A stretch of 64,000 bases of DNA from Candidatus Gastranaerophilales bacterium (GTDB lineage: Bacteria > Cyanobacteriota > Vampirovibrionia > Gastranaerophilales > Gastranaerophilaceae), in contig CALVEG010000003.1 in assembly GCA_944326525.1 (NCBI GenBank), positions 1-64,000 of the forward strand. The letters run 5' to 3'. Below the pieces are notes generated by a model. The model saw only the letters and a list, made by a program, of their open reading frames with translations, did not search any database and was not told where the DNA came from. Below, piece by piece: positions 3,967-42,830 of the stretch (within the stretch, counting starts at the first letter, position 1; the number at the start of each line of letters is the position of its first letter). Position numbers and translations under genes: made by a program.

Positions 3967-4001
3967 AAGCATTTAGGTTTTAATTAAGAAAAATTAAAAA
4001 A

Positions 4002-4379: not shown

Positions 4380-4435
4380 ATTAATCTCCTTTTTCTAATC
4401 TTAACAATTAAGGAATTATCTGTCAATAAAAAATA

Positions 4436-4470: not shown

Positions 4471-4485
4471 ATTTTGTAGAAGTTA

Positions 4486-7400
4486 TTACTTCATCAATTC
4501 GCCAACTGCTTTGTAAACAGCCATACGTTTTGATGCATCTTCTTCAGCTTGAGCGTAAAGTTCTGCAGCATGATCAGGGTTTGTTTTCATCAAAGATTTG
4601 TAACGACCTTCTGATTTAATAAAGTCCTGATAGCTTTCTTTAGGTTCTTTAGCATCCCATGTGAACGGAGCATCAGGATTTGCCGGATTGTATCTGTAAA
4701 GCGGGAAGTATCCTGCTTCAACTGCACGTTTTTGTTCTGTCTGAGTCTTAGACATATCAATTCCGTGAGCGATACAAGGTGCATAAGCAAAGATGATTGA
4801 TGGTCCGTTGTATGCTTCAGCTTCTTGGAATGCTTTAAGAGTTTGAGCTCTGTCTGCACCCAATGCAACTGATGCTACATATACGTAACCATAAGACATA
4901 CTCATCAAGCCCATGTTTTTCTTGTAAGTTTTCTTACCGCCTGTAGCGAATTTAGCAACCGCACCTGTTGGTGTTGATTTAGAAGCTTGACCACCAGTGT
5001 TAGAGTAAACTTCAGTATCAAGAACAAGAATATTTACGTTCTGATTTTGTGCGATTACGTGGTCGATACCGCCGTATCCGATATCGTTTGCCCAACCGTC
5101 ACCACCGATAATCCATACTGATTTATCTGTGAAGTAGTCTTGAAGTTCTCTTACTTTTGCTAAATCAGGGCATCCGCAGTTTGCATATTTTGCAATAACT
5201 TTCTTAGCGTTTTCCTGAGCTGCAACAGCTTCTTCAGTTTTTGAATTATCCCAGTGTGACATTGCTTCGGTTAAAGCTTCTTTTAAGTCAGCAGGTGATT
5301 TTTCATTTTCAAGAACTTTTTCAACATAAGTTTTCAAAGTATCTCTGTTCTGGTCAACTGCCAATCTCATACCAAAACCGAATTCAGCGTTGTCTTCAAA
5401 TAATGAGTTAGCCCAAGCCGGCCCTCTGCCATCCTTATTTGTTGTGTAAGGAATAGTCGGGAATGTACCTGAGTAAATTGAAGAACATCCTGTTGCGTTA
5501 GCTACGATTGCGTTTTCTCCGAACAATTGAGAAACCAATTTAACGTAAGGAGTTTCTCCACAACCTGCGCAAGCGCCTGAGAATTCAAATAACGGTTTTC
5601 TTAACATTGCGCCTTTGATTGTCTTAGTAGTGTTTTTACCCATTACGTTATCAGGCAATGAATCGAAGAATTTTTCGTTAACTACTTCGCCAACAGCTTC
5701 TTCTTCTTCAATAGTTGACCAAGTCAAAGCTGCTTTTTCAGGGTTCTTAGCCATCGGGCACTGATCTATACATACGCCGCATCCTGTACAATCTTTGCAG
5801 TATACTTGAACTTTGAATTTTTCATCTGCCAAAGCCGGTTTTGCAGGGATTGTTTTAAATGATTCAGGTGCATTTGCAAGATCTTTTTCTTCAATCAATT
5901 TAGTTCTGATTGCAGCGTGAGGACATGCTGATGCGCAAATTCCGCACTGAATACAATTTTCCGGATTCCATTTTGGAACTCTCGGTGCGATTCCGCGTTT
6001 TTCTAAGCAAGCTGTTCCTGTCGGAATTACACCGTCATTTGACATTGCTGATACCGGAATATCATCACCTTTTTGTCTCATTGAAGGTTCAATGATTTTC
6101 TTAGCAAAGTCTGATGCATTGTCTGGTATAAGTTTAATGTCATCTGCGTGTGCTACTCCTGCTAAAGATGAAGGAACAACAACTTCTTCTGTTGCATCAA
6201 CCGCTGCATCTATAAGTGCAAGGTTCATATTTACAACATCGTCGCCTTTTTTCTTGAAGGTTTTCTTTGTCATTTCTCTCATACCTTCAAGCGCTTGTTC
6301 AAACGGAATAATTCCTGAAACTTTGAAGTATGCAACCATCATAACTGTGTTTGCACCTTTTCCTCTTAAGCCAGGCTGTTGTTCAATAAGTTTTTCTGCA
6401 TCTACATTGTAGAATTTGATTTTCTTATTGATAATTGTTTCTTGCATATCACGAGTCAAATGAGAGAATGCTTCTTCTTTTGACCATGGGCTGTTAAGCA
6501 AGAATGTACCGCCTTCTTTAATACCTTTTAATAAATCGTATCTGCCGATGTATGCATGTGCTGAACAAGATACAAAGTCAGGTGCTGTAATAAGGTATGT
6601 TGATTTGATTTGTTTGTCGCCGAATCTTAAGTGAGAAACGGTTACACCAAATGATTTTTTAGAGTCATAAGCAAAGTATGCTTGAGCATCTTTGTTTGTA
6701 TATTGACCGATAATTTTAATTGAGTTTTTGTTAGCACCAACAGTACCGTCTGAACCCAAGCCCCAGAACATACAGTTTGTTGTTCCTTCCGGTTCTGTAA
6801 CGATGTGTTCTGTAACTTTTAATGATTTGTGAGTTACATCATCTTCGATACCAACTGTGAATCCGTGGAATCCGTTGTTTTCTGAGTGTTTGTAAATAGC
6901 GTAAACCATTGACGGTGTAAATTCTTTTGAAGATAAACCGTAACGGCCGCCAATTACTCTGATGTCTTTGTTTTCTAATGCTGCAACTACATCCATGTAT
7001 AAAGGTTCACCGATTGAACCAGGTTCTTTAGTTCTGTCAAGAACTGCAATACGTTTTGTTGTTTTTGGAAGTGCTGCGTTGAAACGTTTTGTATCAAACG
7101 GTCTATATAGTCTTACTTTAACCAAACCGTATTTAGTTCCGCGTTTTGCGTTCAAGTATTCGATTGTTTCTTCAATAGTTTCACAACCAGAACCGATTGC
7201 AACGATTACGTCAGTAGCATCAGGTGCGCCGACATAATCGAACGGATGATACTGTCTGCCTGTAATTTTTGCAACTTTGTCCATATATTCTTGAACAATG
7301 TCAGGAACAGCGTCATAGTATTTGTTAACTGTTTCACGACCTTGGAAGTATACGTCAGTGTTTTGAGCACCTACTTTACAAATCGGAGCTTCCGGTCTCA

Positions 7401-26159: not shown

Positions 26160-26234
26160 TGGCGGCGGTAAGGGGAATTGAACCCCTGTTTGGAGAATGA
26201 GAATCTGCCGTCCTAACCACTAGACGATACCGCT
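26160..26234 (-). tRNA. tRNA-Glu (anticodon CTC), chimeric after element insertion
   Basis: Minus-strand cloverleaf: acceptor AGCGGTA with TACCGCC, T-C at 8-9, D-arm GTCT...GGAC, anticodon loop TTCTCAT (CTC, Glu), T-arm AGGGG TTCAATT CCCCT, discriminator G and encoded CCA. Two pairs fail: A1-C72, and C28-C42 in the anticodon stem (GCAGA against TCTCC). The 5' half is element-derived; the native 5' half, preserved at 42792-42830, has GGAGA and would pair perfectly. Function is likely but stability may be reduced. Confidence 0.88.
26196..26234 (-). repeat. attL: left copy of the 39-nt insertion repeat
   Basis: 26196-26234 matches 42792-42830 at 38 of 39 positions; the one difference is G at 26207 versus C at 42803. 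The first 11 nt (AATGAGAATCT, the anticodon-loop region) are identical in both, and the crossover must lie there because the mismatch sorts with the element. Confidence 0.9.
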
Positions 26235-26273: not shown

Positions 26274-26380
26274 GTAGTTGAAGATAATTGTGTAGTGCCG
26301 ATTTTAAACTGATTATAATTCTTTGCATTTTTACATTTTTATCCCATTTTTGCATGCTCGTTTGTTCTATGAAAATCAAA

Positions 26381-26402
26381 AAATGTTGGTAAAATGTTGG
26401 TA
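26381..26402 (+). repeat. Left integrase arm-type repeats
   Basis: Two perfect tandem copies of AAATGTTGGTA (26381-26391 and 26392-26402). The same pair, with one change, lies near the right end at 42642-42663. Oppositely oriented ACCAATTA/ACCAATTT copies follow near 26473-26490. Spacing and placement fit arm-binding sites of a tyrosine integrase. Confidence 0.65.
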
Positions 26403-26600
26403 ATTTTAATAATCAACGATGATAATTTGTAACAACAAAATTTTTGCATTTCTAAAAATTATTATAAAATATCACCAATTATTACCAATTTAAAAAATAT
26501 AATTTATAACAACTAATAATAATGTATAACTCTCTATAACCCGAAAAGCCGTATCAATTCTTGATTTGACCTTGTTTTATCTTTCTTATAATGTTTAAAT

Positions 26601-27683
26601 ATGGCAGAAATTAGAATACGTAATACAAAAAAAGGACAAAAAAAATATTTAGCTGTTGTTAGAATTGTAGGCAGGAAAACTCGTTCTAAAACTTTTAATC
26701 GTAAAAGCGATGCTGATAGATGGATTGTAGAAATGGAACAAGCTAAGCTTAATGATGGTGCATCTTTTTTGTATCAATACAAAAAGCACACAATGGCAGA
26801 ACTTATTGACCAATACATCTCGCTTATCCTACCTCAACGCAAGTCTCAACAAAAAACTTACAAAACTTATTTAATATGGTGGAAAAACAAAATAGGTCAT
26901 TATTTTGTAGGTGATGTTTCTTCAAGTTTAATTGCAAAATGTAGAGATGAATTGTTAATTGAGCCACATCCGACACGGAACGACGAACATCGTTCAAAAA
27001 TTACCGTAAACAGATATTTAGCCTGCTTATCAATAGTTTTTACTTATGCAGTTAATGAACTTGAGTGGCTGAATAAAAACCCGGTACACAAAGTAAAAAA
27101 GTTTCCAGAGGGTAAAGGGCGTAATCGCTTCTTATCAGAAGATGAAATTAAACGTTTGCTTAAAACTTGTTATAAATACTCTGACAAAAATGATATTTAT
27201 TTGTTTGTAAAACTAGCACTTGCAACTGGTGCTAGATACGGAGAATTACAACGCTTACAAAAACAGGATGTATTTTTAGATAATGAACAGCCGTTTGTAT
27301 TATTTAGAAATACAAAAAACGGTGAAGATAAAGCAGTTGCTTTAACTCCGGAAATGACAACTTTGTTAAAAGAACATTTGGTTAAACAAACATTAATCAC
27401 AAACTATGTATTTCCCGATTATGAAAGTAAAGGCAAAAAGCCTAAAAACTTTACTAAAACGTGGCAGAAGGTCAGAAAAGAAGCACAATTGGTCGATTTC
27501 AGATTCCATGATTTACGTCATACCTGTGCAAGTTATTTAGCAATAGATGGTTGTTCTCTCTTACAAATTGCCTCCATACTTGGGCATAAAACTATGTCTA
27601 TGGTAAAACGTTATGCACATCTTACCACCCAAAGTACAGCACAGGCACTTTATAATATGACAACAAAGTATATGAATTATTAA
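26601..27683 (+). CDS. int: Site-specific tyrosine integrase of the island
   Basis: A 360-aa phage-type integrase that would catalyse insertion into tRNA-Glu. The N-terminal basic segment (IRIRNTKKGQKKYLAVVRI...SKTFNRKSDADRW) resembles the arm-binding domain, and a core-binding SAM-like domain lies at about 65-160. The catalytic residues are R212 (ATGARYGELQRL), H303 and R306 (RFHDLRHTCASYLA), H329 (LGHKT) and the nucleophile Y338 (VKRYAHLT). All are present, so the enzyme should be active. There is no ribosome site; TATAAT (26587-26592) ends 8 nt before the ATG, so the mRNA is leaderless or nearly so. It reads away from attL toward the cargo. Confidence 0.95.
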   Translation: MAEIRIRNTKKGQKKYLAVVRIVGRKTRSKTFNRKSDADRWIVEMEQAKLNDGASFLYQYKKHTMAELIDQYISLILPQRKSQQKTYKTYLIWWKNKIGHYFVGDVSSSLIAKCRDELLIEPHPTRNDEHRSKITVNRYLACLSIVFTYAVNELEWLNKNPVHKVKKFPEGKGRNRFLSEDEIKRLLKTCYKYSDKNDIYLFVKLALATGARYGELQRLQKQDVFLDNEQPFVLFRNTKNGEDKAVALTPEMTTLLKEHLVKQTLITNYVFPDYESKGKKPKNFTKTWQKVRKEAQLVDFRFHDLRHTCASYLAIDGCSLLQIASILGHKTMSMVKRYAHLTTQSTAQALYNMTTKYMNY

Positions 27684-27781: not shown

Positions 27782-29497
27782 TTAATGTTTAAATTTATCC
27801 AACATATTTTTTATATGGATATAATAACAAGGGTTATCAGTTGTGCAACTGTTCTCACCATAACGGCTATAAATAATTGTCCCCGCTTTATTAGGCTGAA
27901 ATAAATTTGGCATTATTTGTGAGAACAAAACATCAGTATTACTTGAAAAACTATATTGCAAGTAATTGTATGGAATGTTTTCTGTGTCATTTATAAACAG
28001 ATATTGTTTAGGTTGCAAGCTCAAATATATTGTATATTCATTATTTTTAAGCTCCGACATTTTTATAATTTCAGCTTTTGGGAAAATTGCTTGTATCTGG
28101 TGTAAATTAAGTTTTACAATATTAAAACCGTTATTGTTATCATATTTTATTTCAGAAAGCATTAAGGTTGTAGGTGAAAATAAATATAATTTTGAATTTA
28201 GTAATGTTAGATACACAGCAGGTGAACTTAGGCAAATATCGTCCATACTGTTATCTTCACAAAAAGAAATGTTTTTAATAAATGTTCTATTGTTATTTAG
28301 TATTTCTAAACGGCTATAATGTTGTGAACCTTCATGCGGTGTTTGAAATATTACAATCTCATCAGCATTTAAAGGCTCATACCCTTTTTGCATTTTCCAT
28401 AATCCTGTAGTTTTTGAGTAAATATACCAGTCATAAACTTCTTTAAATTCAAAAGTTAAAGAAATATATTCAGGAACCAAATCATCTTCTTCTACAAATC
28501 TTTCAAATTTTTTATATGGATATTTTTCATAGGCTTCAATATAATTATTAACTAACATTTCTTTAAATACTGGTATTAGTTTTGAATTTGGATTCTGATT
28601 TATAAATGTTTGCACACTATTAATATATTCAGGCTTTAGCAGAACTTTTACTTCTTGCATAGAGTTATTTTCATCGTTTGAAATCTCAAATTTTCCTTTA
28701 TCATAAATATAACTAAACATCGCTTCATATAAATAATTCTCAACTGTTTCAATCTCTTTAAATTTAGGATATTTATGCATAAAAGTTTCATAATCATAAG
28801 CCCGAGAATTTAATTCGTCATAAGATACATTTACATAATTGTCAAAAAAAGCAGGTTTGGCATGTAATGCACGTATGCGTAAAAATTCCTGCCAATCATC
28901 AGGCAGATACTTTGCAAAAGTTTTATATGTAAACTCTTTATCCTCTACTAGATGATTTCCGTATGTAAAATTAAAACTAACTTTCAAACCTACTTTTGCT
29001 ATAAGTTTTTCATACTCTTTTGCACATTCTTCTGCTTGACTGGAACTTGACATATTTTGACAGGCTGTAAATTTTTCATTTAAAATATTTTTTTCATTAT
29101 ATATAGCAAATTGCCGTAACGCTGCTAGATACTGTGAAAAATATTCAATATTTTGTTCTTTGTCATCGTTAAATTGCAGCATAGTAAGCATGAACTTTTG
29201 TACATCTTTTAAATTTGAAACAACAGAATTCAAATCACCTTGATTTGTTAAACTTGGGATTGTTTCAGGGTTCATTAAATATTTTTCAAGTTCATTAGAG
29301 GGTATAAATTTAACTGTTTGTTCTACAACACTTTTATTAACATTATCTTCTTGTGAGGAATTTGCATTAGCAGACTGTTTGAGATACAAAATAAAAAATC
29401 CAAAAGTTATTATAGATATGATTATTATAACTATTGCAACAAAACTTTTGTAATAAGTCTCTTTAGTTAATTTAATTTCACAATTTTTACGTTTCAT
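27782..29497 (-). CDS. Large membrane-anchored protein, last gene of the envelope operon
   Basis: A 571-aa protein with a basic N-terminus, one strong membrane helix (about residues 18-40) and a long domain predicted to lie outside the cytoplasm. The first part after the helix is polar and Asn/Ser-rich; the rest mixes helices (residues 60-330) and beta-rich stretches (330-571) with several Cys that could form disulfides. I recognise no family. It is the last of six genes on the minus strand, 6 bp after the repeat protein gene, so it is surely cotranscribed. It is convergent with int (98 bp), with no terminator visible between them. Confidence 0.65.
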   Translation of the reverse strand: MKRKNCEIKLTKETYYKSFVAIVIIIISIITFGFFILYLKQSANANSSQEDNVNKSVVEQTVKFIPSNELEKYLMNPETIPSLTNQGDLNSVVSNLKDVQKFMLTMLQFNDDKEQNIEYFSQYLAALRQFAIYNEKNILNEKFTACQNMSSSSQAEECAKEYEKLIAKVGLKVSFNFTYGNHLVEDKEFTYKTFAKYLPDDWQEFLRIRALHAKPAFFDNYVNVSYDELNSRAYDYETFMHKYPKFKEIETVENYLYEAMFSYIYDKGKFEISNDENNSMQEVKVLLKPEYINSVQTFINQNPNSKLIPVFKEMLVNNYIEAYEKYPYKKFERFVEEDDLVPEYISLTFEFKEVYDWYIYSKTTGLWKMQKGYEPLNADEIVIFQTPHEGSQHYSRLEILNNNRTFIKNISFCEDNSMDDICLSSPAVYLTLLNSKLYLFSPTTLMLSEIKYDNNNGFNIVKLNLHQIQAIFPKAEIIKMSELKNNEYTIYLSLQPKQYLFINDTENIPYNYLQYSFSSNTDVLFSQIMPNLFQPNKAGTIIYSRYGENSCTTDNPCYYIHIKNMLDKFKH

Positions 29498-29503
29498 AAT
29501 TTT

Positions 29504-29932
29504 TTATCTATAACTGCCAGTTTTATTTCCATACTTATCATATGTCGTTGTAACTCCATTACTATCAGTTTTCATAGATCCAGTCTTGTTTCCGTATTTA
29601 TCGTATATTAAAGTTATACCATTACTGTCCTTTTTAAATATTTGTGTTTTGTTGCCATAGCGGTCATATTCCGTTGTTATTCCGTTTGTATCTGTTTTAT
29701 AAGTGTTTTCTTTATTTCCATATCTGTCATAATACGTTTTGATATTATTTGAATTGGTCGTGTAGTAACCCTCTTTATTTCCATACCGATCATATTTAGT
29801 TACATTTCCATTTGAATTGCTTTGATATGAACCAGTTTTATTTCCGTATTTGTCATACATATTTGTCGTTCCTGCAAAAGATGGTAGTATTATACAGGAT
29901 AAGAGTAAAAATGTGATAATAATTTTTTTCAT
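29504..29932 (-). CDS. Secreted protein of six 21-aa YD-like repeats
   Basis: A 142-aa protein with a clean signal peptide (MKKIIITFLLLSCIILPSFAG) followed by nothing but repeats. Five full units and one partial unit of 21 residues start Y-D-[KR]-Y-G-N-K and continue [TE]-G-x-Y-x-[TS]-[ND]-S-N-G-[IV]-T-T. The unit resembles the YD repeats of Rhs/teneurin proteins, which form beta-solenoid or barrel surfaces; this is inference. The 63-bp DNA repeat is visible, so copy number could vary by slippage. It lies 7 bp upstream of the anchored 571-aa protein gene and 11 bp after the four-helix membrane protein gene. Confidence 0.75.
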   Translation of the reverse strand: MKKIIITFLLLSCIILPSFAGTTNMYDKYGNKTGSYQSNSNGNVTKYDRYGNKEGYYTTNSNNIKTYYDRYGNKENTYKTDTNGITTEYDRYGNKTQIFKKDSNGITLIYDKYGNKTGSMKTDSNGVTTTYDKYGNKTGSYR

Positions 29933-29943
29933 ATATAAACCTC

Positions 29944-30639
29944 TTATTTCTTATATTGTATTAGTTTTATTTCTGAATTACGTTTATTTATCATTTTTTC
30001 AATTTTTATACAACAAGCATTTATGTTTTCACTATTTGCATTGCTATAAATTAAATCTTTTAATTGATTAACTTCATCAATAATATTATTCTCAATATTA
30101 ACTAATTCATCATAAGATTTTGATGGACTTGACATAACTAAATCAATAATATTTTCTATATTTTTTTTAACTATATTATCGGTTGTTCTATCTAAAAGCA
30201 ATATTAATTCTGACTTTATTTCTTTTATGTATTCAGTATCAATATATTGTTTTTTTAAGTTTGAATGAGTCTCTACATTAACAGATAAAATCGAAAACAG
30301 AATTATTAAATATATACCAGTAATAATAGCTTGTAATAGATAATAATTATTAAAATTGAAACTATCAGTTACTTTAAAATGAAGCGACAAATACAATGCA
30401 CAAATAATTTGCACAATCAAATATATAAAAGATACAGCATAAACAGGCATTTCCTGTACAGTTTTATTTGCTGTAGTTCTTATAAAGTATGGGGTAGCTA
30501 TAAACATCAAATAACCTCCTAAAATAAACCCGTATGATAGGTAATCCCAAAAGGCTAAATCTGCTTTTATATAAAAATATATGTAACTTAAAATGACAAC
30601 AAATACAGCTTTTGCTAAAAAATTATATAAGTTTTTCAT
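29944..30639 (-). CDS. Four-helix membrane protein with cytosolic helical tail
   Basis: A 231-aa protein with four membrane helices in the first ~125 residues (near 5-25, 30-52, 62-85 and 98-120), then a soluble, charged C-terminal part (LKKQYIDTEYIKEIKSELILLLDRTTDN...) that is probably all-helical. No family is recognised. It starts 3 bp after the SPFH protein gene and precedes the repeat-protein gene by 11 bp. A partner role for the SPFH protein at the membrane is plausible from the context only. Confidence 0.6.
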   Translation of the reverse strand: MKNLYNFLAKAVFVVILSYIYFYIKADLAFWDYLSYGFILGGYLMFIATPYFIRTTANKTVQEMPVYAVSFIYLIVQIICALYLSLHFKVTDSFNFNNYYLLQAIITGIYLIILFSILSVNVETHSNLKKQYIDTEYIKEIKSELILLLDRTTDNIVKKNIENIIDLVMSSPSKSYDELVNIENNIIDEVNQLKDLIYSNANSENINACCIKIEKMINKRNSEIKLIQYKK

Positions 30640-30642
30640 ACT

Positions 30643-31701
30643 TTACTCCTGTTTATTCCCACAGTTACTGCAAAATTTTGCATTTTCACTTATTTCACTT
30701 CCGCAGTTTATACAATATTTTTTCGTTTCAAACTTATATCCGCATTCAGAGCAGAATTTTGCATTATATGCTAATGCTTTTTGACATTGTGGACAAATTT
30801 TTTGTTGTTCAGTTGATGTCATAACGTTTTTACTCATATCTGCAATTACATTACCTGCTGACAGCCCCATTCCAATGCTTGCCCCTAAACCAGCAATACC
30901 ACCTTCATTTTCTGCAAGTGAATGTAATATTTCAGTTGATTGTTGTCGGCTCCAATCTTTTCCTAAAATATTCATTACTTTTCTGTTAGCAAAAGCTTCT
31001 TCAAGTTTTTGCCTGTTAGGATCATTTTCGGGTATATCAATTCCAGCAATCGAAAATACTATTAATTTAATTCCATATTCGTTTAAAATTTCCTGTAAAG
31101 CAGGTGTTATTTTTTCAGCCAAAGTGTTTAGTTCAGCACTAATACCTAAAATTTCTTTATTCAGTGCAATAATTGTTGATGTGAGTATTGTTTTTATATG
31201 TTGTTGAAATTCATTGATAAAATAATTATTAAGACTTTCTTGTTCCAAATAATTTACATTATTACCTAATAATTTTAATAAAAAACGTGAACAGTTATCT
31301 ATTTGTATTTTATATGCACCTCTAGCTCTAACACTGGTTGCAATATCCAATACAGGATCACGTAATTGTATAGGAGAATTTGTACCCCATTTTATTTCAA
31401 GTGAGTGGGCTTTACGTATAAAATATACATTGCAATTAAAACTATTTTTCCCACCCGAAAATGTATTGCGTAAATCACTAATAAAAGGATAATTTTCAGT
31501 TGTCAGATTATAAGTTCCATTTTCAAATACCTGTTCAATTACTCCGTTTTTAATAAATATTGCTTCTTCATTTGGAGCAACTATTAATGTTGAGTTTGTA
31601 TTAAAATTTTCCTCCTGATGTTTACTAACAAGTAAATTCCCATCCGAAGTATTTTGTATTACACTTGTCCAATTTTTTATATTTTTTTCGAAAAATCCCA
31701 T
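30643..31701 (-). CDS. SPFH-domain protein with C-terminal double zinc ribbon (YdjI-like)
   Basis: A 352-aa protein. Residues about 30-255 form an SPFH/band-7-type domain (NGVIEQVFENGTYNLTTENYPF, RDPVLDIATSVRARGAYKIQI, GIKLIVFSIAGIDIPENDPNR). A Gly/Ala-rich linker leads to two zinc ribbons (CPQC...CSECG and CINCG...CSNCG). This layout matches the bacterial 'virion core protein-like' / YdjI group. In Bacillus subtilis, YdjI works with YdjG and YdjH to recruit PspA to stressed membranes; no pspA lies in this cluster. It is the third gene of the operon, with 14- and 3-bp spacing to its neighbours. Confidence 0.85.
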   Translation of the reverse strand: MGFFEKNIKNWTSVIQNTSDGNLLVSKHQEENFNTNSTLIVAPNEEAIFIKNGVIEQVFENGTYNLTTENYPFISDLRNTFSGGKNSFNCNVYFIRKAHSLEIKWGTNSPIQLRDPVLDIATSVRARGAYKIQIDNCSRFLLKLLGNNVNYLEQESLNNYFINEFQQHIKTILTSTIIALNKEILGISAELNTLAEKITPALQEILNEYGIKLIVFSIAGIDIPENDPNRQKLEEAFANRKVMNILGKDWSRQQSTEILHSLAENEGGIAGLGASIGMGLSAGNVIADMSKNVMTSTEQQKICPQCQKALAYNAKFCSECGYKFETKKYCINCGSEISENAKFCSNCGNKQE

Positions 31702-31715
31702 AAATTATCCTCACA

Positions 31716-32414
31716 TTACATTAAGGCTTTCTTTTTTTCACGTAATAATTGACGCATTCCTTGTATAGAACGTTCATCATCACGATTAATATATGTGGCA
31801 AAAGCCTCGCCACCTGTTGTTTTAAGGCTAAATATTTGATACTGTTTACTATATCGTTGACCATTGTATGTAAATTCTTCTTTTTTATGTTGTGTATTAA
31901 ACGCAACAATGTCTCTATAAAAATATTCACCTGTATTAAAAGAATTTTCATCATTTAATAAAGAGTAAATACAGTCATAGTAATACATTTGATTTTCAGA
32001 AAAAAACAATACCATAAATCTATAATTTGAAGGCATGTCATCTTCAGGTTTGTATACAAAATCCCTAAAATAATCAGCACTGTATTCTTTAAACTCTAAA
32101 ATAACAGGTTCAATTTCTTGACATTCTTCAATGTCTATCCCCAATTCATCAATAGCTTTTTGTTTTATAGTATTTCTTATTTTTTGTATTTCATGTGCTA
32201 TATTATTAATATTTGCTTTTGTTGATAATCGCCAAACAGACGCTGTAGCAATAATAATACAAATAACTGCAAATATAAGAAACATAATTAAATTGTTATC
32301 GTTAATAAAAACACAAAAAAATACAACTCCTAAAACTAATGACCAACCCAAAATTTTACCTGCACTACTTGGATAAAAATAATCTCTTGTTATTCCATAA
32401 TCAATTTCATTCAT
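31716..32414 (-). CDS. Two-helix membrane protein of unknown function
   Basis: A 232-aa protein with two adjacent membrane helices (about 16-34 and 38-60), then a soluble domain (about 75-225) containing MVLFFSENQMYYYDCIYSLL, TGEYFYRDIVAFNT and FSLKTTGGEAFATYINRDDE. The soluble part looks like an alpha/beta regulatory domain, without a motif I know. Position directly before the SPFH gene (14 bp) and after the zinc-ribbon/TPR gene (12 bp) makes it a candidate membrane partner of the SPFH protein. Confidence 0.65.
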   Translation of the reverse strand: MNEIDYGITRDYFYPSSAGKILGWSLVLGVVFFCVFINDNNLIMFLIFAVICIIIATASVWRLSTKANINNIAHEIQKIRNTIKQKAIDELGIDIEECQEIEPVILEFKEYSADYFRDFVYKPEDDMPSNYRFMVLFFSENQMYYYDCIYSLLNDENSFNTGEYFYRDIVAFNTQHKKEEFTYNGQRYSKQYQIFSLKTTGGEAFATYINRDDERSIQGMRQLLREKKKALM

Positions 32415-32426
32415 TTTGTATCTCCT

Positions 32427-33011
32427 TTAAACTTCTATTACATCCGGTATTTTTTGTCCTAACACTTCAAATAATGTTATTATTTCATTTTTTGAAATAT
32501 TATTTTTTACGGTGTTATATTCATCTAAATAATTTGGTGACATATTCAATTTTTTTCTTTCATAAAAATCGTATTTTATATATGCCAAAAAATAATGATA
32601 AATAGCTTTATTCTCAAGCGTAATTGCGGTATTTAAAAGCTCAATTATTCTTTTTATTTGACTTAAAGGTGTCAAAAAAGGTTTTTTACCCTTTAGTAAA
32701 GCTATTGCATAGTAAAAATAAATATCAGAATTATTAACATTACTATCGAGAGCTTTATCAAAGTGTTGTATTGCTTTATCATAGAATTTTAATTTTAGAT
32801 AGCACATTGCAATAGAATTATTGATATCTTCGTTATCGTTATTAGTTTCCAAAAGATTATTGTATATTTTTATATATTCATTTATGTTCAAATTATTTAA
32901 ATGATTTAAATTCTCTATTACTATCGGAGAATGGCAATACTCACATGTTTTTTGTTCGGTTGAAACTGCTGCACCACACCTAGGACAAGTTAAATTTACA
33001 ACGTAAGCCAT
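32427..33011 (-). CDS. Zinc-ribbon and TPR protein, first gene of the envelope operon
   Basis: A 194-aa protein with an N-terminal zinc ribbon (CPRCGA...CEYCHS, residues 9-27) followed by tetratricopeptide-like helices (NNLLETNNDNEDINNSIAM..., FYDKAIQHFDKAL.., YYAIALLKGK...). No membrane segment is seen. A zinc ribbon joined to a protein-binding repeat is common in membrane-stress and signalling clusters with SPFH proteins. AAGAAAGG lies before the ATG. It heads a six-gene minus-strand operon running to 27782 whose gaps are only 3-14 bp. Confidence 0.75.
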   Translation of the reverse strand: MAYVVNLTCPRCGAAVSTEQKTCEYCHSPIVIENLNHLNNLNINEYIKIYNNLLETNNDNEDINNSIAMCYLKLKFYDKAIQHFDKALDSNVNNSDIYFYYAIALLKGKKPFLTPLSQIKRIIELLNTAITLENKAIYHYFLAYIKYDFYERKKLNMSPNYLDEYNTVKNNISKNEIITLFEVLGQKIPDVIEV

Positions 33012-33240: not shown

Positions 33241-33786
33241 TTATAAAACAAACTGTTTGTAACTGTTATCTATTTCGTCCTGCTCAATGCCTATATAACG
33301 TAAGGTTATTTTCGGGTTTGAGTGGTTAAATATCATCTGTAACATCGCAACATCTTTGAACTGTTTGTAATGGTGATAGCCAAAACTCTTTCTCATGCTG
33401 TGTGTGCCAATGTTGACAGTAATTCCTACCGCCTTGCAAGCCTCATTCAGCATTCTGTATGCCTGCGAACGGTCAAGCCGTTTTTGTTTTTGGCTTAAAA
33501 ATAACGGTTCATCATCTTCTTTATTTTTTATAAATTCCTGTATAAGTTTTTTCAATTTGTCATTTATCGGGAATTTTTTAAACTTGTTTGTTTTTTGTTC
33601 CTTTATTTCTATATGTGTTTTGTTTCTAACATTTGAAACATTCAAATTTAATATATCTGAAACTCGTAACCCGCTGTTTGTTCCAAGTACAAAAAGTAAC
33701 CTGTTTCGCTTGCTTTTCTTTGCAAGATATTCTTCAACCTGTTTTATTTGCTGTTTACTGCGTATCGGTTCTACAGTCTGTTTCAT
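33241..33786 (-). CDS. Catalytic-domain-only tyrosine recombinase
   Basis: A 181-aa protein that is a complete tyrosine-recombinase catalytic domain without a core-binding domain. R41 (TNSGLRVSDIL), K in EQKTNK, H129-x-x-R132 (GTHSMRKSFGYH), H155 (FNHSN) and the nucleophile Y164 (LRYIGI) are all present. Such short forms occur on plasmids and phages of low-GC bacteria, where they resolve multimers or invert DNA. Its target here is unknown; the inverted repeat upstream of the envelope operon and the repeats near 38017 are candidates. AGAAAGGCAGG precedes the ATG. Confidence 0.85.
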   Translation of the reverse strand: MKQTVEPIRSKQQIKQVEEYLAKKSKRNRLLFVLGTNSGLRVSDILNLNVSNVRNKTHIEIKEQKTNKFKKFPINDKLKKLIQEFIKNKEDDEPLFLSQKQKRLDRSQAYRMLNEACKAVGITVNIGTHSMRKSFGYHHYKQFKDVAMLQMIFNHSNPKITLRYIGIEQDEIDNSYKQFVL

Positions 33787-34084: not shown

Positions 34085-37000
34085 CTATATATCAATTTGG
34101 GACAGCAAAGACAAAAATTTACCTTCATTGTATGAATTATAAATTGTCAATTTGTCTATTATTTTTTTAGCAAATTTATATTCTTCTTGTTGACGTCCAC
34201 CTTGTAAAAGATTTTCTAAAATATCTTCAATTAACTTTAAATTGTTCTTTATAAAATATTCATTTATACACTCAGTTATATTAATATATTTAGCAACATT
34301 ATCGCCTTGATCAACAAGTATATTTTTTATTTTATTAAATATTTTTTCTAAATAATTTTTTGAAAAGTTTGATGGAGAAAGAAAATTTGAAATACTTTTT
34401 AATAGTCTATAATTATTAACTGGGTCATCATAAAATGTAACTAACGCATTATTTTTTAATGTAACATTATCTATAATATGAATATTTGGCTTAAAATTAT
34501 TCTCATATAATGTATTTAATAGTGATACTTTAAGCTCAACATTATAATTATTTAGATTTTCCAAATAATATTCTGCAATAACTTTTTTATCAACATTTAG
34601 TTCTAATTCATTTATCAAAGATAACAGTTTGTTTAAGTTTTTAAGTTTACTATTATCAATATTATTATCAACAAGCAATTGGTAATAATCCATTAAATTT
34701 TTATATTTATTTAAAATAATAGAATATGTATCAGATTCACCTTGAATACGTTGTTGTAAAATAGAATTATCTAGAATTAACTTTAAATAATTTTCGTCAT
34801 TTGGTAACTCTTTAATAAAATTTTGTATTCCTACACGTATTACCTGTTGAGCAAAACTGTTTTTACTACTATCATCGATATTGAATCTTATTAACTCTAC
34901 TAAAATTTTTATTAAAAGTTCATTTGATGAAATTCTAGATAATATTGTATTCATATAAGTATACAAATTTTTTCTATGATCATCATCTAAGTCATCTAAG
35001 GTTATTAGTGATATGCCCTCTGCAAATGTATCCAAATTTAACAAATTGTTTTGATATAAAATTGACATTATATTAGATAATAATTTACCTAAATTCTTTC
35101 TAGATGTTTCAGGTAATGATTCTTTATCCCAGAGCCCTTTTAAAATATTTATTATAGAACTTGAATCTTTGTTCAAATCAATATTATTAATCAATGCAAC
35201 TATCTGATATTCTGGAATGAGGGTAAGTTTATTATATTTTTTTAGAAGTTTTGCATATTCAACACCTAAATTCCCACCATCTAAAGTCACACAATTTAAA
35301 ATATAATTTATAATAATATCATCTTCAAATTTAACATCATTATTTGACAAGATATACTCAAAAATTTCAATATAAAAGTCATTTGACAATTTAGTGGTTG
35401 CTTCCTTACCCCATAAAGATTTACAAAAATTTAGTTTAAATTCTTCTATAAAATTGTTAGTAGCATATTTTGATAAAAATGTAAAAGTATTTATATAAAT
35501 TCTATAGTCCGTTTCAAGTATATCTTTTATAGTTGTACTATTTAAATTGTCTATAATGAGTTTTGCCAATTTATATAGCTGATTTGTACTTTCGACAATA
35601 GAATTAATTATTGAAATAAGCAATTTAGAAGTATAGGCTGGATTATTTTCATTATTAAGAATAATATTAGCTTGTTTCGTAATTTCAATTTCTTTAATAC
35701 TATCAATTTCAGTAAATATTTCTCCATTTATTAATGCATTTTTTATTTCTAAATCATTATTTATATTTTCTTTTAAATGAATGTATGGCAAAAAGGAAAT
35801 ATTAGGTTTTAAATAAACTCTTATATTTTTTAAAAATGAAATTATTTCATCTATATCATTTATTTCATTCCTCAAATTATTTTCATCGACGCCATTTATT
35901 AAAATATCATCAATTATAGTTGGATTAAATAGTAAATATTCTTCAAAGTTACTCCATTTCTGTTTTATAACCATCATAATAATAAATACTGGCAAATCCA
36001 ATAACAAAAATGATTTTTCTTTATCTATATTTAGGGCTAATGCGTAATAAATAGCCAAATCATTTAAAAATCTCTTAATTTGCCTAGGTGTGTTACCTTT
36101 ATATGCATAAAACAATATACTTTTAACTTGGGAAATCTCTCTCGGGGTCAATGTTTCAGAAATGCTTAATTTATTTAATTGTTTTTCAATAAATGCATCC
36201 CTGTCTTCTTCTTTTAAAATAGGAATTCTTAAATATGTATTAAATAATTTATCAAAAAATTCTTGTTCACAGTTTATTACATCATCTTGTAAATTATATT
36301 TCTGTGCTATATAATTTTTAATAGCTTTATCATCACAAGGTATTATGTAAAAACAATTTTCTCTATCCATAAAAGTTTTTATTGTAGATAATGTTTCATA
36401 GGCTAGTTCAGGCTCACAACGATCTAAATTATCAAATACTATAACAGTTTTTTTATTTATCTTTTTAATAATATCTTTATAAATTTTTTCAAATTGTTCA
36501 GGGGAAAAGACAGGTTTACATGTATAGCTTTTTAACTTTCGTCTTAAAATAATTGTTTCGCAAAGTTTTCTAAGCTCCCCTTCAAAAATTTTAGCTAGAA
36601 TTAATGGGGCTGATACCATTGCAAAACTAGCATAGAAAAATGGGCTAATCCAATCTATAAATATGTTAAACTTAGTAAAATACAATCCTAATTTTATAAC
36701 ACAATGATTAGCAAGTAAAACTAAAAATAAAATTAACAATATTCTACAAGCTATTTTAACAAAATTTATAATACTTTTACAAATTTCATCAAATTTTAAT
36801 TTTACTTCATCTGTAATTTCTTCATCGCAATATAATATTTGTTCAAGCGATTGTTTTTTATCATTTTTATAGCCATCCTTAAATACAGAGTTTGTTTTCA
36901 TCCTTAGTTGATTATCTATATCGAATAAGATACTTCTAGATAGAGGATGTCCTATATATTTCCATACATCAATATACAAATATTCGTAATTATCATTATT

Positions 37001-37207
37001 TAATAAATGTTTCTTAACTTCATTTATTATAAAACTCTTACCACTACCCCAACTACCAAATAAGCCAATAGTAAATGCTGATTTTGACAATTCTGTTTTA
37101 TTTATACAATTAAATATGGTTTGAGCTATATTAGTATGAATTCCAAAACTATCTTCTTCTTCTTGGTTATTTGAATCAAATAGAAATAAATCTTTTTCGA
37201 CTGGCAT
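34085..37207 (-). CDS. KAP-family P-loop NTPase with membrane insert
   Basis: A 1040-aa predicted membrane-bound NTPase. Walker A GSWGSGKS is at 51-58. Two membrane helices lie between Walker A and B (about 149-175 and 186-208), the hallmark of KAP NTPases. Walker B VIVFDNLDRCEPE is at 255-267, and a helical region ends the ATPase part (NTPRQIKRFLNDLAIYYAL near 375). The remaining ~600 residues are Asn/Leu-rich helical repeats that could be a sensor. KAP NTPases occur in phage-defence islands, so an anti-phage role is likely but inferred. AAGGAT precedes the ATG. The sequence is extremely AT-rich. Confidence 0.85.
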   Translation of the reverse strand: MPVEKDLFLFDSNNQEEEDSFGIHTNIAQTIFNCINKTELSKSAFTIGLFGSWGSGKSFIINEVKKHLLNNDNYEYLYIDVWKYIGHPLSRSILFDIDNQLRMKTNSVFKDGYKNDKKQSLEQILYCDEEITDEVKLKFDEICKSIINFVKIACRILLILFLVLLANHCVIKLGLYFTKFNIFIDWISPFFYASFAMVSAPLILAKIFEGELRKLCETIILRRKLKSYTCKPVFSPEQFEKIYKDIIKKINKKTVIVFDNLDRCEPELAYETLSTIKTFMDRENCFYIIPCDDKAIKNYIAQKYNLQDDVINCEQEFFDKLFNTYLRIPILKEEDRDAFIEKQLNKLSISETLTPREISQVKSILFYAYKGNTPRQIKRFLNDLAIYYALALNIDKEKSFLLLDLPVFIIMMVIKQKWSNFEEYLLFNPTIIDDILINGVDENNLRNEINDIDEIISFLKNIRVYLKPNISFLPYIHLKENINNDLEIKNALINGEIFTEIDSIKEIEITKQANIILNNENNPAYTSKLLISIINSIVESTNQLYKLAKLIIDNLNSTTIKDILETDYRIYINTFTFLSKYATNNFIEEFKLNFCKSLWGKEATTKLSNDFYIEIFEYILSNNDVKFEDDIIINYILNCVTLDGGNLGVEYAKLLKKYNKLTLIPEYQIVALINNIDLNKDSSSIINILKGLWDKESLPETSRKNLGKLLSNIMSILYQNNLLNLDTFAEGISLITLDDLDDDHRKNLYTYMNTILSRISSNELLIKILVELIRFNIDDSSKNSFAQQVIRVGIQNFIKELPNDENYLKLILDNSILQQRIQGESDTYSIILNKYKNLMDYYQLLVDNNIDNSKLKNLNKLLSLINELELNVDKKVIAEYYLENLNNYNVELKVSLLNTLYENNFKPNIHIIDNVTLKNNALVTFYDDPVNNYRLLKSISNFLSPSNFSKNYLEKIFNKIKNILVDQGDNVAKYINITECINEYFIKNNLKLIEDILENLLQGGRQQEEYKFAKKIIDKLTIYNSYNEGKFLSLLSQIDI

Positions 37208-37333: not shown

Positions 37334-37639
37334 CTATGCTACTTCAAGCTCATAGCCTAATTCTTGAAATATTTTTGCTATAGTTGAGAATTTTGGTTCT
37401 TTTTCACTTTTAAACAAACTGTATAAATGACTTCTTGACATTCCAACTTTTTTAGCAAAACCTGATACAGTGTCTTTTGCTTTTATGACAATTTCTAATG
37501 CACGATAAAAAGAATTAAAATCACCATCTTCCAAATAATCTTTTAAACTTGCATTTAGAAACAGTTTAATTTCTTCATCTGATTTTAAATCAGTAACTAT
37601 ATAATTTTCTAAATCTATTGTATGTTTTAATTCTTTCAT
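37334..37639 (-). CDS. HigA-like helix-turn-helix antitoxin
   Basis: A 101-aa antitoxin with an XRE-type helix-turn-helix (AKKVGMSRSHLYSLFKSE...FSTIAKIFQELGYE, about 60-95). The N-terminal part (LKSDEEIKLFLNASLKDYLEDGDFNSFYRALEIVIKAK) is the usual start of 'addiction module antidote' proteins that pair with RelE/HigB-type toxins. ATG at 37639 is chosen because GGAGAAAG lies 6 nt before it and it overlaps the toxin stop as ATGA; the ATG 15 nt upstream lacks a ribosome site. It should neutralise the toxin and repress the promoter. Confidence 0.88.
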   Translation of the reverse strand: MKELKHTIDLENYIVTDLKSDEEIKLFLNASLKDYLEDGDFNSFYRALEIVIKAKDTVSGFAKKVGMSRSHLYSLFKSEKEPKFSTIAKIFQELGYELEVA

Positions 37640-37959
37640 TGTAACTTTCTCCATTCTTGAAGTATATTTTTGGCTTTTTCTATATCTTTTTGTTGAGTAG
37701 ATTTGTCTCCGCCATTAATCAATAATACAATTACATTATCTATTTCTGTATAATAAATTCTATAGCCTGCTCCAAACTTAAATCGTAATTCGGAGATTTC
37801 ATTATCTATTTTTTTATGGTCACCAAAATTGTTTTCTAAAAGTCTTATTAATCTGCTTTGTATTCGGGCTTTTGTTGTTTTGTCAAGTGAATCTAGCCAT
37901 TCTATGAATGGTACTTTTTCATTTTCAAGTGCTGCAATTTTGACAATTCTTTGTTCCAT
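37636..37959 (-). CDS. RelE/HigB-type toxin (phage Gp49-like)
   Basis: A 107-aa putative mRNA interferase of the RelE superfamily, 'addiction module killer' type. Family pattern: FIEWLDSLDKTTKARIQSRLIRL...GDHKKI...ISELRFKFGAGYRIYY, then VLLINGGDKSTQQKDIEKA. The start at ATG 37959 gives the family length and lies 6 nt after a -10 hexamer; an upstream TTG would place part of the promoter in the reading frame. Toxin precedes antitoxin, as in higBA operons. It probably stabilises the island. Confidence 0.88.
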   Translation of the reverse strand: MEQRIVKIAALENEKVPFIEWLDSLDKTTKARIQSRLIRLLENNFGDHKKIDNEISELRFKFGAGYRIYYTEIDNVIVLLINGGDKSTQQKDIEKAKNILQEWRKLQ

Positions 37960-37965
37960 ATTTAT

Positions 37966-37994
37966 AGTGTACTCTATAGCAGACAATTTGTCAA
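37966..37994 (-). promoter_or_regulatory. Leaderless-type promoter of the toxin-antitoxin operon
   Basis: Minus strand: consensus -35 TTGACA (37989-37994), 17 nt, -10 TACACT (37966-37971), then 6 nt to the toxin ATG. There is no ribosome site. Confidence 0.7.
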
Positions 37995-38905: not shown

Positions 38906-39712
38906 CTAAGTTCTTCTTTCAATCTGTCGTGCATAATTTAATTTACCTTGCAAAACTAATTTTTCTTGTTCTGATAGTATCGGTTTTGCCTTCAAGTAAT
39001 TTATTGAACGCCGTAGTTTATAATCAACACTCAATCTGCCTTTAGAATTTATGTGAATATTCATAATACGTTTTCTTTTTCCGTAAATCCTAATTTTACG
39101 ATAGTTTAGTTTTAATCCTGCTTTTAGTAATTCTTTTTGTACTGTTGAAATTACAGTTACTGGATTTTGTATATTACCTGAAATCACCATGTCATCTGCG
39201 TAAAGTGTCATATTATATCCTAAATCTTGACAGTAATTATAAATCTTATCAAATACAGATTTACAAGCCCAAAAACTCACGATATTACTTGTTGGCACGC
39301 CAAGAGGCAGAGTATCTTTATACGTTATCAGCTTAAGTATTATTTCTGCTGTGTTTTTATTTAACTGGCAATCATCTGTTAAAAATTTAAACACCCGTTC
39401 TTTACTTACACTTCCATAAAAATTTTTTACGTCCAAAACAACTGCATTACGAGAGTTTTTATGAACATTTATCAGATCTATAATCCTACATTTTTTATAT
39501 CCTGTATATAAATAATCCGGTCTTGGTAAATATAGTTGAAAAACTTTATTAATCATTTTTTGAACAGTTTTAAGTTCTTCATCAGGTTTGTGAAATACTC
39601 GTTTTTTGCCTTGAGTTTTTTGTATAGCCGATTTGTAATGTATTGCAATATTTTCTGTTAAATTTTCAAACATTATTGCAATACCTTGCAGTTTATATTG
39701 AAAAATTTGCAT
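38906..39712 (-). CDS. Retron-like reverse transcriptase
   Basis: A 268-aa reverse transcriptase. Motif A Asp D94 lies in VVLDVKNFYGSV, the LPLGVPTSN block (RT4) at 135-143, and the catalytic YADD at 171-174 in LYADDMVISG; the thumb region reads GLKLNYRKIRIYGKRKRIMNIHINSKG. The layout, including a thumb aligned to the retron R-Q-x-V-T-G-L-x-V-N block, is retron-like, but the diagnostic VTG is IMN (216-218). The start is chosen for the AAAGGA 8 nt upstream; the frame stays open further upstream through a structured region that is more likely RNA. The partner would be the non-coding RNA at 39729-39869. Defence is the usual retron role; no effector is identified. Confidence 0.85.
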   Translation of the reverse strand: MQIFQYKLQGIAIMFENLTENIAIHYKSAIQKTQGKKRVFHKPDEELKTVQKMINKVFQLYLPRPDYLYTGYKKCRIIDLINVHKNSRNAVVLDVKNFYGSVSKERVFKFLTDDCQLNKNTAEIILKLITYKDTLPLGVPTSNIVSFWACKSVFDKIYNYCQDLGYNMTLYADDMVISGNIQNPVTVISTVQKELLKAGLKLNYRKIRIYGKRKRIMNIHINSKGRLSVDYKLRRSINYLKAKPILSEQEKLVLQGKLNYARQIERRT

Positions 39713-39728
39713 ATTAAAAATCCTTTCT

Positions 39729-39869
39729 GTTTTTATTTTTCTTTTCGTAATGTTTCCAAGAGCAAGGGGCTTTAACGGGTATATCAGTCTTGGTACAATA
39801 ACGACTGTGCAGGAGTACCCTAGCCCCTGTCTTGCATTGGTGTGTAAGCACCAATCCAAAAGTAAAAAC
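39729..39869 (-). ncRNA. Candidate retron-type msr-msd RNA upstream of the RT
   Basis: Minus strand, 5' to 3': an outer arm GTTTTTA (39863-39869) with CTTTT (39858-39862); two G residues; a 7-bp hairpin with 6-nt loop (39836-39855); then without a gap a 74-nt bulged hairpin (39762-39835) of four 5-bp helices (GCAAG, GGGCT, GGGTA and CAGTC type). The second outer arm AAAAG (39741-39745) and TAAAAAC (39729-39735) pairs the first with a 5-nt bulge, giving a 12-bp enclosing stem. Outer a1/a2-like stem, short hairpin, long hairpin, then RT is the retron plan. It is GC-rich against a very AT-rich background. Confidence 0.6.
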
Positions 39870-39999
39870 AACCTTTTAACATTAATTGCACTGTATACTG
39901 CATACGGTATACATACACATGTTACATTTTTTTATTTACTTTTTTTGATTACAGTTTAATGCCTGTAATAGTACCATTTTCCCTTGCATTTTAGTTAGT

Positions 40000-41325: not shown

Positions 41326-42540
41326 TTAATAATACTGTTGATTTATAAGGTTGTTAGCCGTCTTGATAATATCTACAACTTCTGAATCTACATTTTTTAC
41401 ATTTTGTAACATTCCTAATAAATAAAATCTTCTTTTAGATCGTAACTCATCAGGATCTGTAAATTTTTTATTCAAGTCACGAACTGAGGCTTCTATATTT
41501 TTAGCTTCACGTTTTTTACCATTTTTTTTATATGTTAACATTGAAAGCAATTTAAATATTCGTCTACAATTTTCACATTTTCTAATATTTTTGTTTGTAG
41601 GATCACATAGTTCACACGTTGCATTAATTGTTTTGAATGATATATCATTTGCGATACGAAAAATCTCTGTTGCAATAATTTTATAATTAGCAAAATCCGT
41701 AGTATATCGTTGTTTAGGTAAATCAAGTACTTTTTTAAATTTTTTTTTGGAGTTGTTTAGTTCATTTTCCTTATTTAAGTAGTTTTGTTCTGATTCATTA
41801 CCATTTATATCTTTAGCAATTTCTTCAAGTTTATAAACTCTGCCATAAACTACAGCTTTAATTTTGTTTAACACTCTTGATACGCCACAAATACCACTGT
41901 TTATGTAATCATTATCGATCATCAACATAACTTGAGCGAAATCTTCTTGCGTTGGTCTACCACGCTTAGACTTGTTATCTATAACAGTTTTACTTGTATT
42001 AAATAAAGATATCCGTCCTGTTATTTCATTTGCGTATGCTCTTGTTTCTTTTATTTCTTTATTATACTGTTTCAGATCGCCTATGAATAAAATTTTAAAC
42101 AAAATATTTTTATTTTGATAATTTCGATCATAAATTACAATATATTTATTACTTATCACAAAATCACAAAGTGACTTAATCATTTCATGTTTTTCGGCAT
42201 AGATCGAGCTATCTAAAATTATATTCTGTAGATATTTGGAAGAAAAACCATTTAAATAAAAAAATACATTAGAAATATAATAAATAATTTTATTAATCAA
42301 ATCAAAATGTAATATATACTCAGGTTTTATAAATTGTCCTAATAAATTTATAGAAACTAAATCCATAAAATCAATAGGTTTGCTATGATTAATAGTTTGT
42401 TTATATGCTTTTAAATTATTTTTACGATCCTCTAGAATATTAAAAATTTCATTGAGTTTAAATTCTTCATAATGTTTTAATAAGTATGAACAAAATTTTA
42501 TATAGTTATATTGTTGATTATTCAATCTTGCTTTTGACAT
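41326..42540 (-). CDS. 404-aa island protein with a four-Cys cluster, function unknown
   Basis: A 404-aa, Lys/Asn-rich soluble protein. The N-terminal half is helical; a basic K-R-G-R-P motif (AT-hook-like) near residue 193 precedes a helix-turn-helix-like stretch (QEDFAQVMLMIDNDYINSGICGVSRVLNKI). A C-E-L-C...C-E-N-C cluster near 315-335 probably binds zinc. These hint at DNA binding, for example a replication or regulatory protein, but no family is recognised. There is no ribosome site; an extended -10 (TGGTATTAT) ends 6 nt before the ATG. It is the gene nearest the right end of the island. Confidence 0.6.
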   Translation of the reverse strand: MSKARLNNQQYNYIKFCSYLLKHYEEFKLNEIFNILEDRKNNLKAYKQTINHSKPIDFMDLVSINLLGQFIKPEYILHFDLINKIIYYISNVFFYLNGFSSKYLQNIILDSSIYAEKHEMIKSLCDFVISNKYIVIYDRNYQNKNILFKILFIGDLKQYNKEIKETRAYANEITGRISLFNTSKTVIDNKSKRGRPTQEDFAQVMLMIDNDYINSGICGVSRVLNKIKAVVYGRVYKLEEIAKDINGNESEQNYLNKENELNNSKKKFKKVLDLPKQRYTTDFANYKIIATEIFRIANDISFKTINATCELCDPTNKNIRKCENCRRIFKLLSMLTYKKNGKKREAKNIEASVRDLNKKFTDPDELRSKRRFYLLGMLQNVKNVDSEVVDIIKTANNLINQQYY

Positions 42541-42575: not shown

Positions 42576-42641
42576 GTATGTAATATTTATTATGATATTA
42601 GCTCTATATTATAGACTATATAATTCACTTTCATCCACCAA

Positions 42642-42663
42642 AAATGTTGGCAAAATGTTGGTA
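42642..42663 (+). repeat. Right integrase arm-type repeats
   Basis: AAATGTTGGCA (42642-42652) and AAATGTTGGTA (42653-42663), the same orientation and 11-bp period as at 26381-26402; a decayed third copy follows. Confidence 0.65.
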
Positions 42664-42791
42664 AAAATGCTGAAAATGTATAAAAAAACATGAAAAAAGG
42701 TAACATTTGCATTTCTATAAAATTAAGTAATAATAAGCATTTCAGTATCATGCTCTTTCATTAATTGTTACCTGTTGTTGCGGTAAAGAAT

Positions 42792-42830
42792 AATGAGAAT
42801 CTCCCGTCCTAACCACTAGACGATACCGCT
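42792..42830 (-). pseudogene. attR: stranded 5' half of the original tRNA-Glu
   Basis: Exact 5' half of a tRNA-Glu from position 1 through the anticodon loop, with no 3' half. Its anticodon-stem strand GGAGA pairs perfectly with TCTCC of the 3' half now at 26160 onward, so this is the native half displaced by the element. Its native promoter lies just upstream. Confidence 0.88.

What the first reader, a model, noticed from the sequence alone, without database searches (positions are those of the whole stretch)
27782..33011. Six-gene SPFH / zinc-ribbon envelope operon carried on a mobile island
Seen: six same-strand genes with 3-14 bp gaps: zinc-ribbon/TPR, two-helix membrane protein, SPFH plus double zinc ribbon, four-helix membrane protein, secreted 21-aa-repeat protein, and a single-helix anchored 571-aa protein. 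Known: an SPFH/zinc-ribbon protein (YdjI) acts with YdjG/YdjH and PspA at stressed membranes in Bacillus. Here PspA is missing and two exported proteins are added. Inference: an uncharacterised envelope-surveillance or defence system spanning cytoplasm, membrane and exterior.
Basis: partly seen in the sequence, partly recalled or inferred. Interest (0 to 1): 0.78.

Follow-up and report, generated by a model that had tools for sequence, protein, structure and literature searches.

The report
Mobile membrane-scaffold gene cassette (SPFH)
A gut bacterium carries, on a genomic island, a compact set of genes for a membrane-associated protein scaffold whose four core genes recur as a rare travelling set in unrelated bacterial phyla, sometimes wrapped around toxin-immunity genes, which suggests a little-known membrane platform used in bacterial conflict; its function is untested.

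Summary
Six same-strand genes (gaps 12, 14, 3, 11, 6 nt) lie on a 16.6-kb island in tRNA-Glu; a congener has the empty site. The host looks like a Gastranaerophilales bacterium, and its draft genome has no PspA.

The six genes are not one unit. Four form a conserved module: ZnR-TPR (g1), 2TM plus PH-like (g2), SPFH/Band_7_1 (g3) and 4TM-coiled coil (g4). It recurs in Bacillota, Bacteroidota, Pseudomonadota, Spirochaetota and Gastranaerophilales; the SPFH tree contradicts host taxonomy. The g3 tail is exchangeable (double zinc ribbon here, SHOCT elsewhere), and most relatives add YidD. In Clostridia the operon encloses a HerA-like ATPase and acidic-repeat toxin-like proteins with swapped C-termini (one a papain-fold deamidase) and swapped small partners.

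The exported genes g5 and g6 are lineage-specific additions, found with the module in only one other genome. g6 relatives are chromosomal zinc-ribbon-TM proteins.

Best reading: a mobile, PspA-free SPFH scaffold with a variable slot for exported or conflict cargo. The resemblance to Bacillus YdjI covers the SPFH protein only; YdjG, YdjH and PspA equivalents are absent. An anti-phage role is possible but unsupported by PADLOC matches to these genes.

The parts
32427..33011 (-). g1: cytoplasmic zinc-ribbon + TPR protein, 194 aa; probable adaptor; core gene
   Evidence: 44-48% identical homologues in Bacteroidota, Pseudomonadota and Bacillota loci, in the same operon
31716..32414 (-). g2: two TM helices + PH-like beta domain with C-terminal helix, 232 aa; core gene
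   Evidence: AlphaFold2 model mean pLDDT 69; VIA-align list dominated by PH/PTB/FERM-F3 folds, best bacterial PH 3hsa Z 8.3; homologues 31-48%
30643..31701 (-). g3: SPFH (Band_7_1) scaffold protein with C-terminal double zinc ribbon, 352 aa; core gene
   Evidence: clade 100/100 spanning five phyla; relatives carry SHOCT instead of zinc ribbons
29944..30639 (-). g4: about 4-TM protein with cytoplasmic coiled-coil tail, 231 aa; probable membrane anchor of g3; core gene
   Evidence: directly downstream of g3 in all relatives of the clade whose contig extends that far; 25-31% identity
29504..29932 (-). g5: signal peptide + 21-aa repeats, 142 aa; exported; lineage-specific accessory
   Evidence: 63-nt spaced repeats; with the module only in G182 (100% identical)
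27782..29497 (-). g6: single-TM protein with about 500-aa predicted ectodomain, 571 aa; lineage-specific accessory
   Evidence: with the module only in G182; full-length relatives (about 24-32%) are chromosomal Gastranaerophilales proteins with an N-terminal zinc ribbon that g6 lacks
26601..27683 (+). Tyrosine integrase of the island
   Evidence: PF00589 E 5e-32
26196..26234 (.). attL: 5' half of tRNA-Glu (tRNA 26160-26234, minus strand)
   Evidence: 39-nt direct repeat
42792..42830 (.). attR: displaced copy of the tRNA-Glu 5' half; far end of the island
   Evidence: 97% identical repeat; empty site in G124

Best explanation
g1-g4 encode a horizontally transferred, PspA-independent membrane scaffold. 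Inferred mechanism: g3 oligomerises through its SPFH domain on the inner face of the cytoplasmic membrane and is held there by g4 (4TM-coiled coil). g2 (2TM plus PH-like domain) is a second membrane component that meets g3 or its cargo. g1 (zinc ribbon-TPR) is a soluble adaptor, and the exchangeable g3 tail (zinc ribbons or SHOCT) is the interaction hook. The scaffold organises a variable cargo of exported or membrane proteins: here g5 and g6, elsewhere YidD and, in Clostridia, a HerA-like ATPase with a toxin-immunity-like pair. Shown here: the gene set, its conservation, its spread across phyla, the tail swap and the cargo swaps. Inferred: oligomerisation, the contacts between proteins, and the conflict-related purpose.
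For: SPFH clade 100/100 containing Gastranaerophilales, Bacillota, Bacteroidota, Pseudomonadota and Spirochaetota members, apart from the cyanobacterial SPFH proteins of the host's own phylum. g4 follows g3 in every clade locus that extends that far. g1 and g2 recur with YidD in varied order. Strong g1 matches: 6 of 9 genomes with this SPFH clade, all in the operon, against 0 of 791 other genomes sampled in two phyla. Tail swap double zinc ribbon/SHOCT. Toxin-like proteins, small partner genes and HerA ATPase inside the operon of Clostridia relatives; C-termini and partners differ while the N-terminal part is shared. The cassette moved between two genomic contexts (98% over 4.3 kb, ending at the int stop codon), with dN/dS 0-0.2 for every gene tested. 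PspA absent from the genome. SPFH-anchor-scaffold logic by analogy with B. subtilis YdjI, a soluble SPFH protein that needs membrane partners (PMC8581546).
Against: No direct evidence of interaction, oligomerisation or phenotype. Toxin-like genes occur in three relatives only, all Clostridia, and not in the window. g2's PH-like fold rests on a moderate-confidence model with few sequences. Most relatives are MAG contigs, so some taxon labels (notably the Alphaproteobacteria one) may be mis-binned.
Confidence: 0.5

Rival explanations
1. A PSP/Ydj-like envelope-stress module without PspA: it stabilises or repairs the membrane under stress and has no special role in conflict; neighbouring defence genes merely share islands with it.
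For: Same SPFH family (Band_7_1) as B. subtilis YdjI, with C-terminal zinc ribbons; SPFH, ZnR and SHOCT partners are typical of PSP-associated membrane complexes (PMC11237479). Several copies (B. finegoldii L079, Brucepastera L042) have no obvious defence genes nearby.
Against: No PspA in the host genome, no TPM or ZnR-NTF2 partner; very patchy, transferred distribution is unlike a housekeeping stress system; toxin-like genes inside some operons.
Confidence: 0.23
2. An anti-phage defence system: the module senses phage-induced membrane change and g6 or the scaffold acts as effector.
For: Island carries KAP NTPase (QatA/PifA-like), retron type VI-like RT and a toxin-antitoxin pair. Relatives lie beside SoFic (L043) and a type IIG R-M system (L038).
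Against: No PADLOC match for any of the six proteins; no recognisable nuclease, NADase or other effector; not found in IMG/VR; no published SPFH/defence-island link found in the held papers.
Confidence: 0.15
3. The six genes are a fortuitous row of island passengers without joint function.
For: g5 and g6 are absent from all relatives except G182.
Against: g1-g4 co-occur across phyla in shuffled order; all genes compared with G182 are under purifying selection.
Confidence: 0.04

Closest known systems
Bacillus subtilis pspA-ydjGHI operon (PSP system)
   Same: SPFH (Band_7_1) protein without its own TM segment, with C-terminal zinc ribbon, encoded with membrane proteins that may anchor it; compact operon
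   Different: No PspA in operon or genome; YdjG (ZnR-NTF2-TM) and YdjH (TPM domain) are replaced by unrelated ZnR-TPR, 2TM-PH-like and 4TM-coiled-coil proteins; mobile and sporadic
PSP-associated Band-7/SHOCT/ZnR neighbourhoods (mSystems 2024, PMC11237479)
   Same: Band-7, SHOCT and zinc-ribbon parts used to assemble sub-membrane complexes
   Different: The combination g1-g2-(YidD)-SPFH-g4 was not found in the passages of that survey that I read; here it is PspA-free
Polymorphic toxin systems with HerA/FtsK export ATPases (Biol Direct 2012, PMC3482391)
   Same: In Clostridia relatives: common N-terminal part with swapped C-terminal toxin-like domains, adjacent small partner genes, HerA-like ATPase in the operon
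   Different: No WXG/LXG leader seen; band-7, stomatin and YidD do not occur in the held text of that survey; the window copy has no toxin domain

Membership tests
B. subtilis YdjFGHI / PSP system | PspA (PF04012) | tested here: not met
   No match in own genome, 98.5% complete; 9 of 14 control genomes positive
B. subtilis YdjFGHI / PSP system | SPFH (Band_7_1) protein with C-terminal zinc ribbon (YdjI) | tested here: met
   PF13421 E 6e-34, DZR 5e-10; B. subtilis positive for PF13421 among the controls
B. subtilis YdjFGHI / PSP system | YdjH-like TPM-domain membrane protein | tested here: not met
   No TPM hit at E<=1 in any of the six proteins (for g1 and g3 long hit lists were inspected, g1's cut at 25); YdjH description from PMC11237479
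B. subtilis YdjFGHI / PSP system | YdjG-like two-ZnR + NTF2 + TM protein | tested here: not met
   g1 has one ZnR + TPR and no TM; g6 has a TM but no ZnR. g6's chromosomal relatives do have ZnR-TM layout
Known anti-phage defence systems (PADLOC-DB 2023) | Match of the six proteins to a defence model | tested here: not met
   0 families for all six; neighbouring KAP NTPase and RT do match
Polymorphic toxin system | Toxin domain with cognate immunity gene in this operon | tested here: not met
   No toxin domain recognised in g1-g6; present or likely in relatives L036, L040, L044
PH-domain protein (g2) | Seven-stranded PH-like fold with C-terminal helix | tested here: inconclusive
   Model has seven strands + helix; PH/PTB/FERM folds fill the VIA list, best Z 8.4, near the background level for weak models
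Tyrosine-integrase genomic island | Integrase, att direct repeats at a tRNA, empty site in a relative | tested here: met

The most novel reading that the evidence does not exclude
The SPFH/PH-like/4TM/ZnR-TPR module, with YidD and a HerA-like ATPase in some hosts, is the core of an undescribed membrane platform that assembles or exports conflict proteins (toxins with matched immunity in Clostridia, surface proteins g5 and g6 in Gastranaerophilales), and it spreads between phyla on islands.
Probability: 0.2. Interest if true: 0.85.

Novelty: new variant of a known kind. Interest (0 to 1): 0.55.

Why it matters
SPFH scaffolds are universal but their bacterial roles remain unclear. A compact, mobile, PspA-free SPFH module with exchangeable cargo, including toxin-immunity-like pairs, would make it testable whether SPFH membrane platforms serve export or defence, and offers a minimal set of four genes to reconstitute in a laboratory host.

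Tried and rejected
IMG/VR scans with g3, the g3 alignment and the g1 alignment found nothing, so there is no sign of phage carriage, though these are pattern-limited scans. Rfam on the island: only the tRNA. Plain Foldseek of g2 gave no significant hit (best E 0.12). The g6 model was too poor to search (pLDDT 41). Weak hits of g4 to a transposase and an acyltransferase and of g6 to DUF5316 are below cut-off and were rejected. Most SPFH hits in the family search were zinc-ribbon-only matches. Weak g1 matches in many genomes are generic TPR hits. The idea that g6 is part of the travelling core was rejected. The eLife 2020 conflict-systems paper mentions SPFH only in its reference list.

Full report
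OBSERVATION. The six ORFs lie on the minus strand at 27782-33011 with gaps of 12, 14, 3, 11 and 6 nt. Pfam supports SPFH (Band_7_1, 6e-34) plus double zinc ribbon in g3; a zinc ribbon and TPR in g1, just below cut-offs; and no family for g2, g4, g5 or g6. Own-genome searches find one Band_7_1 protein and no PspA.

ISLAND. An integrase (26601-27683) sits next to tRNA-Glu (26160-26234). The 5' half of the tRNA is repeated at 42792-42830 (39 nt, 97%), and arm-like repeats lie near both ends (26379-26403, 42640-42664). A same-genus genome (G124) matches the joined flanks in one uninterrupted 1904-nt alignment at 86%, which is the empty site. The island is therefore about 16.6 kb. It also holds a KAP NTPase with QatA/PifA similarity, a retron type VI-like RT and a toxin-antitoxin pair. 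The host is placed near Gastranaerophilales because a same-family genome (G081) corresponds to a Candidatus Gastranaerophilales MAG.

CONSERVED CORE. A profile of g3 found eleven loci in 84,980 genomes (a lower bound, because the scan needs exact short patterns). Gene tables show: G182, g2-g6 (98% identical over 4.3 kb; g1 side off the contig); G081, g2-g3-g4 followed by a Fic gene (g1 side off the contig); L037 and L043, g2-yidD-SPFH-g4-g1; L039, g2-SPFH-g4-g1; L038, SPFH-g4-g1 (contig starts in SPFH); L041 and L042, yidD-other ZnR-TPR-SPFH-g4; L099 plus L036 (two contigs of G445), g1-g2-yidD-HerA-toxin-like | partner-SPFH-g4; L044, g1-g2-yidD-HerA-toxin-like-partner-SPFH (contig end); L040, toxin-like-partner-SPFH-g4. 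The Bacteroides finegoldii record L079 carries g2-yidD-SPFH-TM protein-g1 with a divergent SPFH, and Butyrivibrio plasmid pNP21 carries SPFH-4TM-ZnR-TPR. Strong g1 matches occur in 6 of 9 clade genomes, all within the operon, and in none of 791 other genomes sampled from two of these phyla. Some loci (L037, L038, L039) are close relatives and not independent.

TRANSFER. In a maximum-likelihood tree the window SPFH falls in a 100/100 clade with Bacillota, Bacteroidota, Pseudomonadota and Spirochaetota members, apart from the SPFH proteins of other members of its own phylum. One long-branched, divergent SPFH of a same-family genome (L058) also falls in that clade, but its place is unsure. Many relatives are MAGs, so individual taxon labels may be wrong.

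DOMAIN SWAPS. Most relatives replace the double zinc ribbon of g3 by a SHOCT domain. YidD was identified by Pfam (5e-14). The toxin-like proteins share a low-complexity acidic N-terminal region and a repeated HNYG-type segment. L036 and L044 share a C-terminal domain (57%) and a related partner gene (31%), whereas L040 has a papain-fold glutamine-deamidase domain (PF15644, 3e-11) and a different partner. A constant N-terminal part with swapped C-terminus and partner is the layout of polymorphic toxins.

G5 AND G6. Both travel with the module only in G182. The shared DNA ends at the int stop codon (window 27682), so the block moved as a cassette; dN/dS is 0-0.2 for every gene compared (g2 partial, g3-g6; few substitutions each). 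Full-length g6 relatives are chromosomal in other Gastranaerophilales-family genera, start with a zinc ribbon and have unrelated neighbours; shorter proteins share the g6 C-terminal domain, one of them in the window's own genome.

G2 FOLD. The AlphaFold2 model (six sequences, mean pLDDT 69) gives two helices, seven strands and a C-terminal helix. Foldseek gave nothing significant; VIA-align lists mainly PH, PTB and FERM-F3 domains, with a bacterial PH domain (3hsa) at Z 8.3. I treat PH-like as likely, not proven.

KNOWN SYSTEMS. In B. subtilis, YdjI is a soluble SPFH protein that needs YdjG and YdjH for membrane recruitment together with PspA (PMC8581546). YdjG is ZnR-NTF2-TM and YdjH carries a TPM domain (PMC11237479). 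Only the SPFH component is shared here. None of the six proteins matches PADLOC. No held paper combines SPFH with YidD or with 'defense island'; the one paper pairing SPFH with 'polymorphic toxin' uses SPFH only in a reference.

VERDICT. A real, rare, mobile four-gene membrane module with exchangeable partners. The scaffold mechanism is inferred from family knowledge and synteny; conflict use is suggested by toxin-like and defence neighbours; nothing is tested experimentally.

Noticed in passing
window 38906-39871: Reverse transcriptase closest to retron type VI models (PADLOC RT_VI 1.4e-51); no Rfam ncRNA found nearby.
   Followed up: partly
window 34085-37207: KAP-family NTPase of 1040 aa with QatA/PifA similarity in its ATPase part.
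   Followed up: no
window 37334-37986: Overlapping toxin-antitoxin-like pair (PF05973 Gp49/HigB-like with PF21716 antidote).
   Followed up: no
window 33241-33786: Second, 181-aa tyrosine recombinase directly upstream of the operon.
   Followed up: no
window 41326-42540: 404-aa ORF at the far end of the island without any family match.
   Followed up: no
L136 (Vibrio coralliilyticus plasmid) 1093-6092: A divergent SPFH gene lies opposite a TIR-domain gene.
   Followed up: no
L044:2210-7963 and L099:8085-11170: HerA-like ATPase (69% identical between the two) followed by acidic-repeat toxin-like protein and, in L044, a small partner gene; possible unrecognised export system.
   Followed up: partly
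L120:3549-4322 (own genome, contig 13): Chromosomal protein sharing the g6 C-terminal domain; a family widespread in the host's family without Pfam match.
   Followed up: partly
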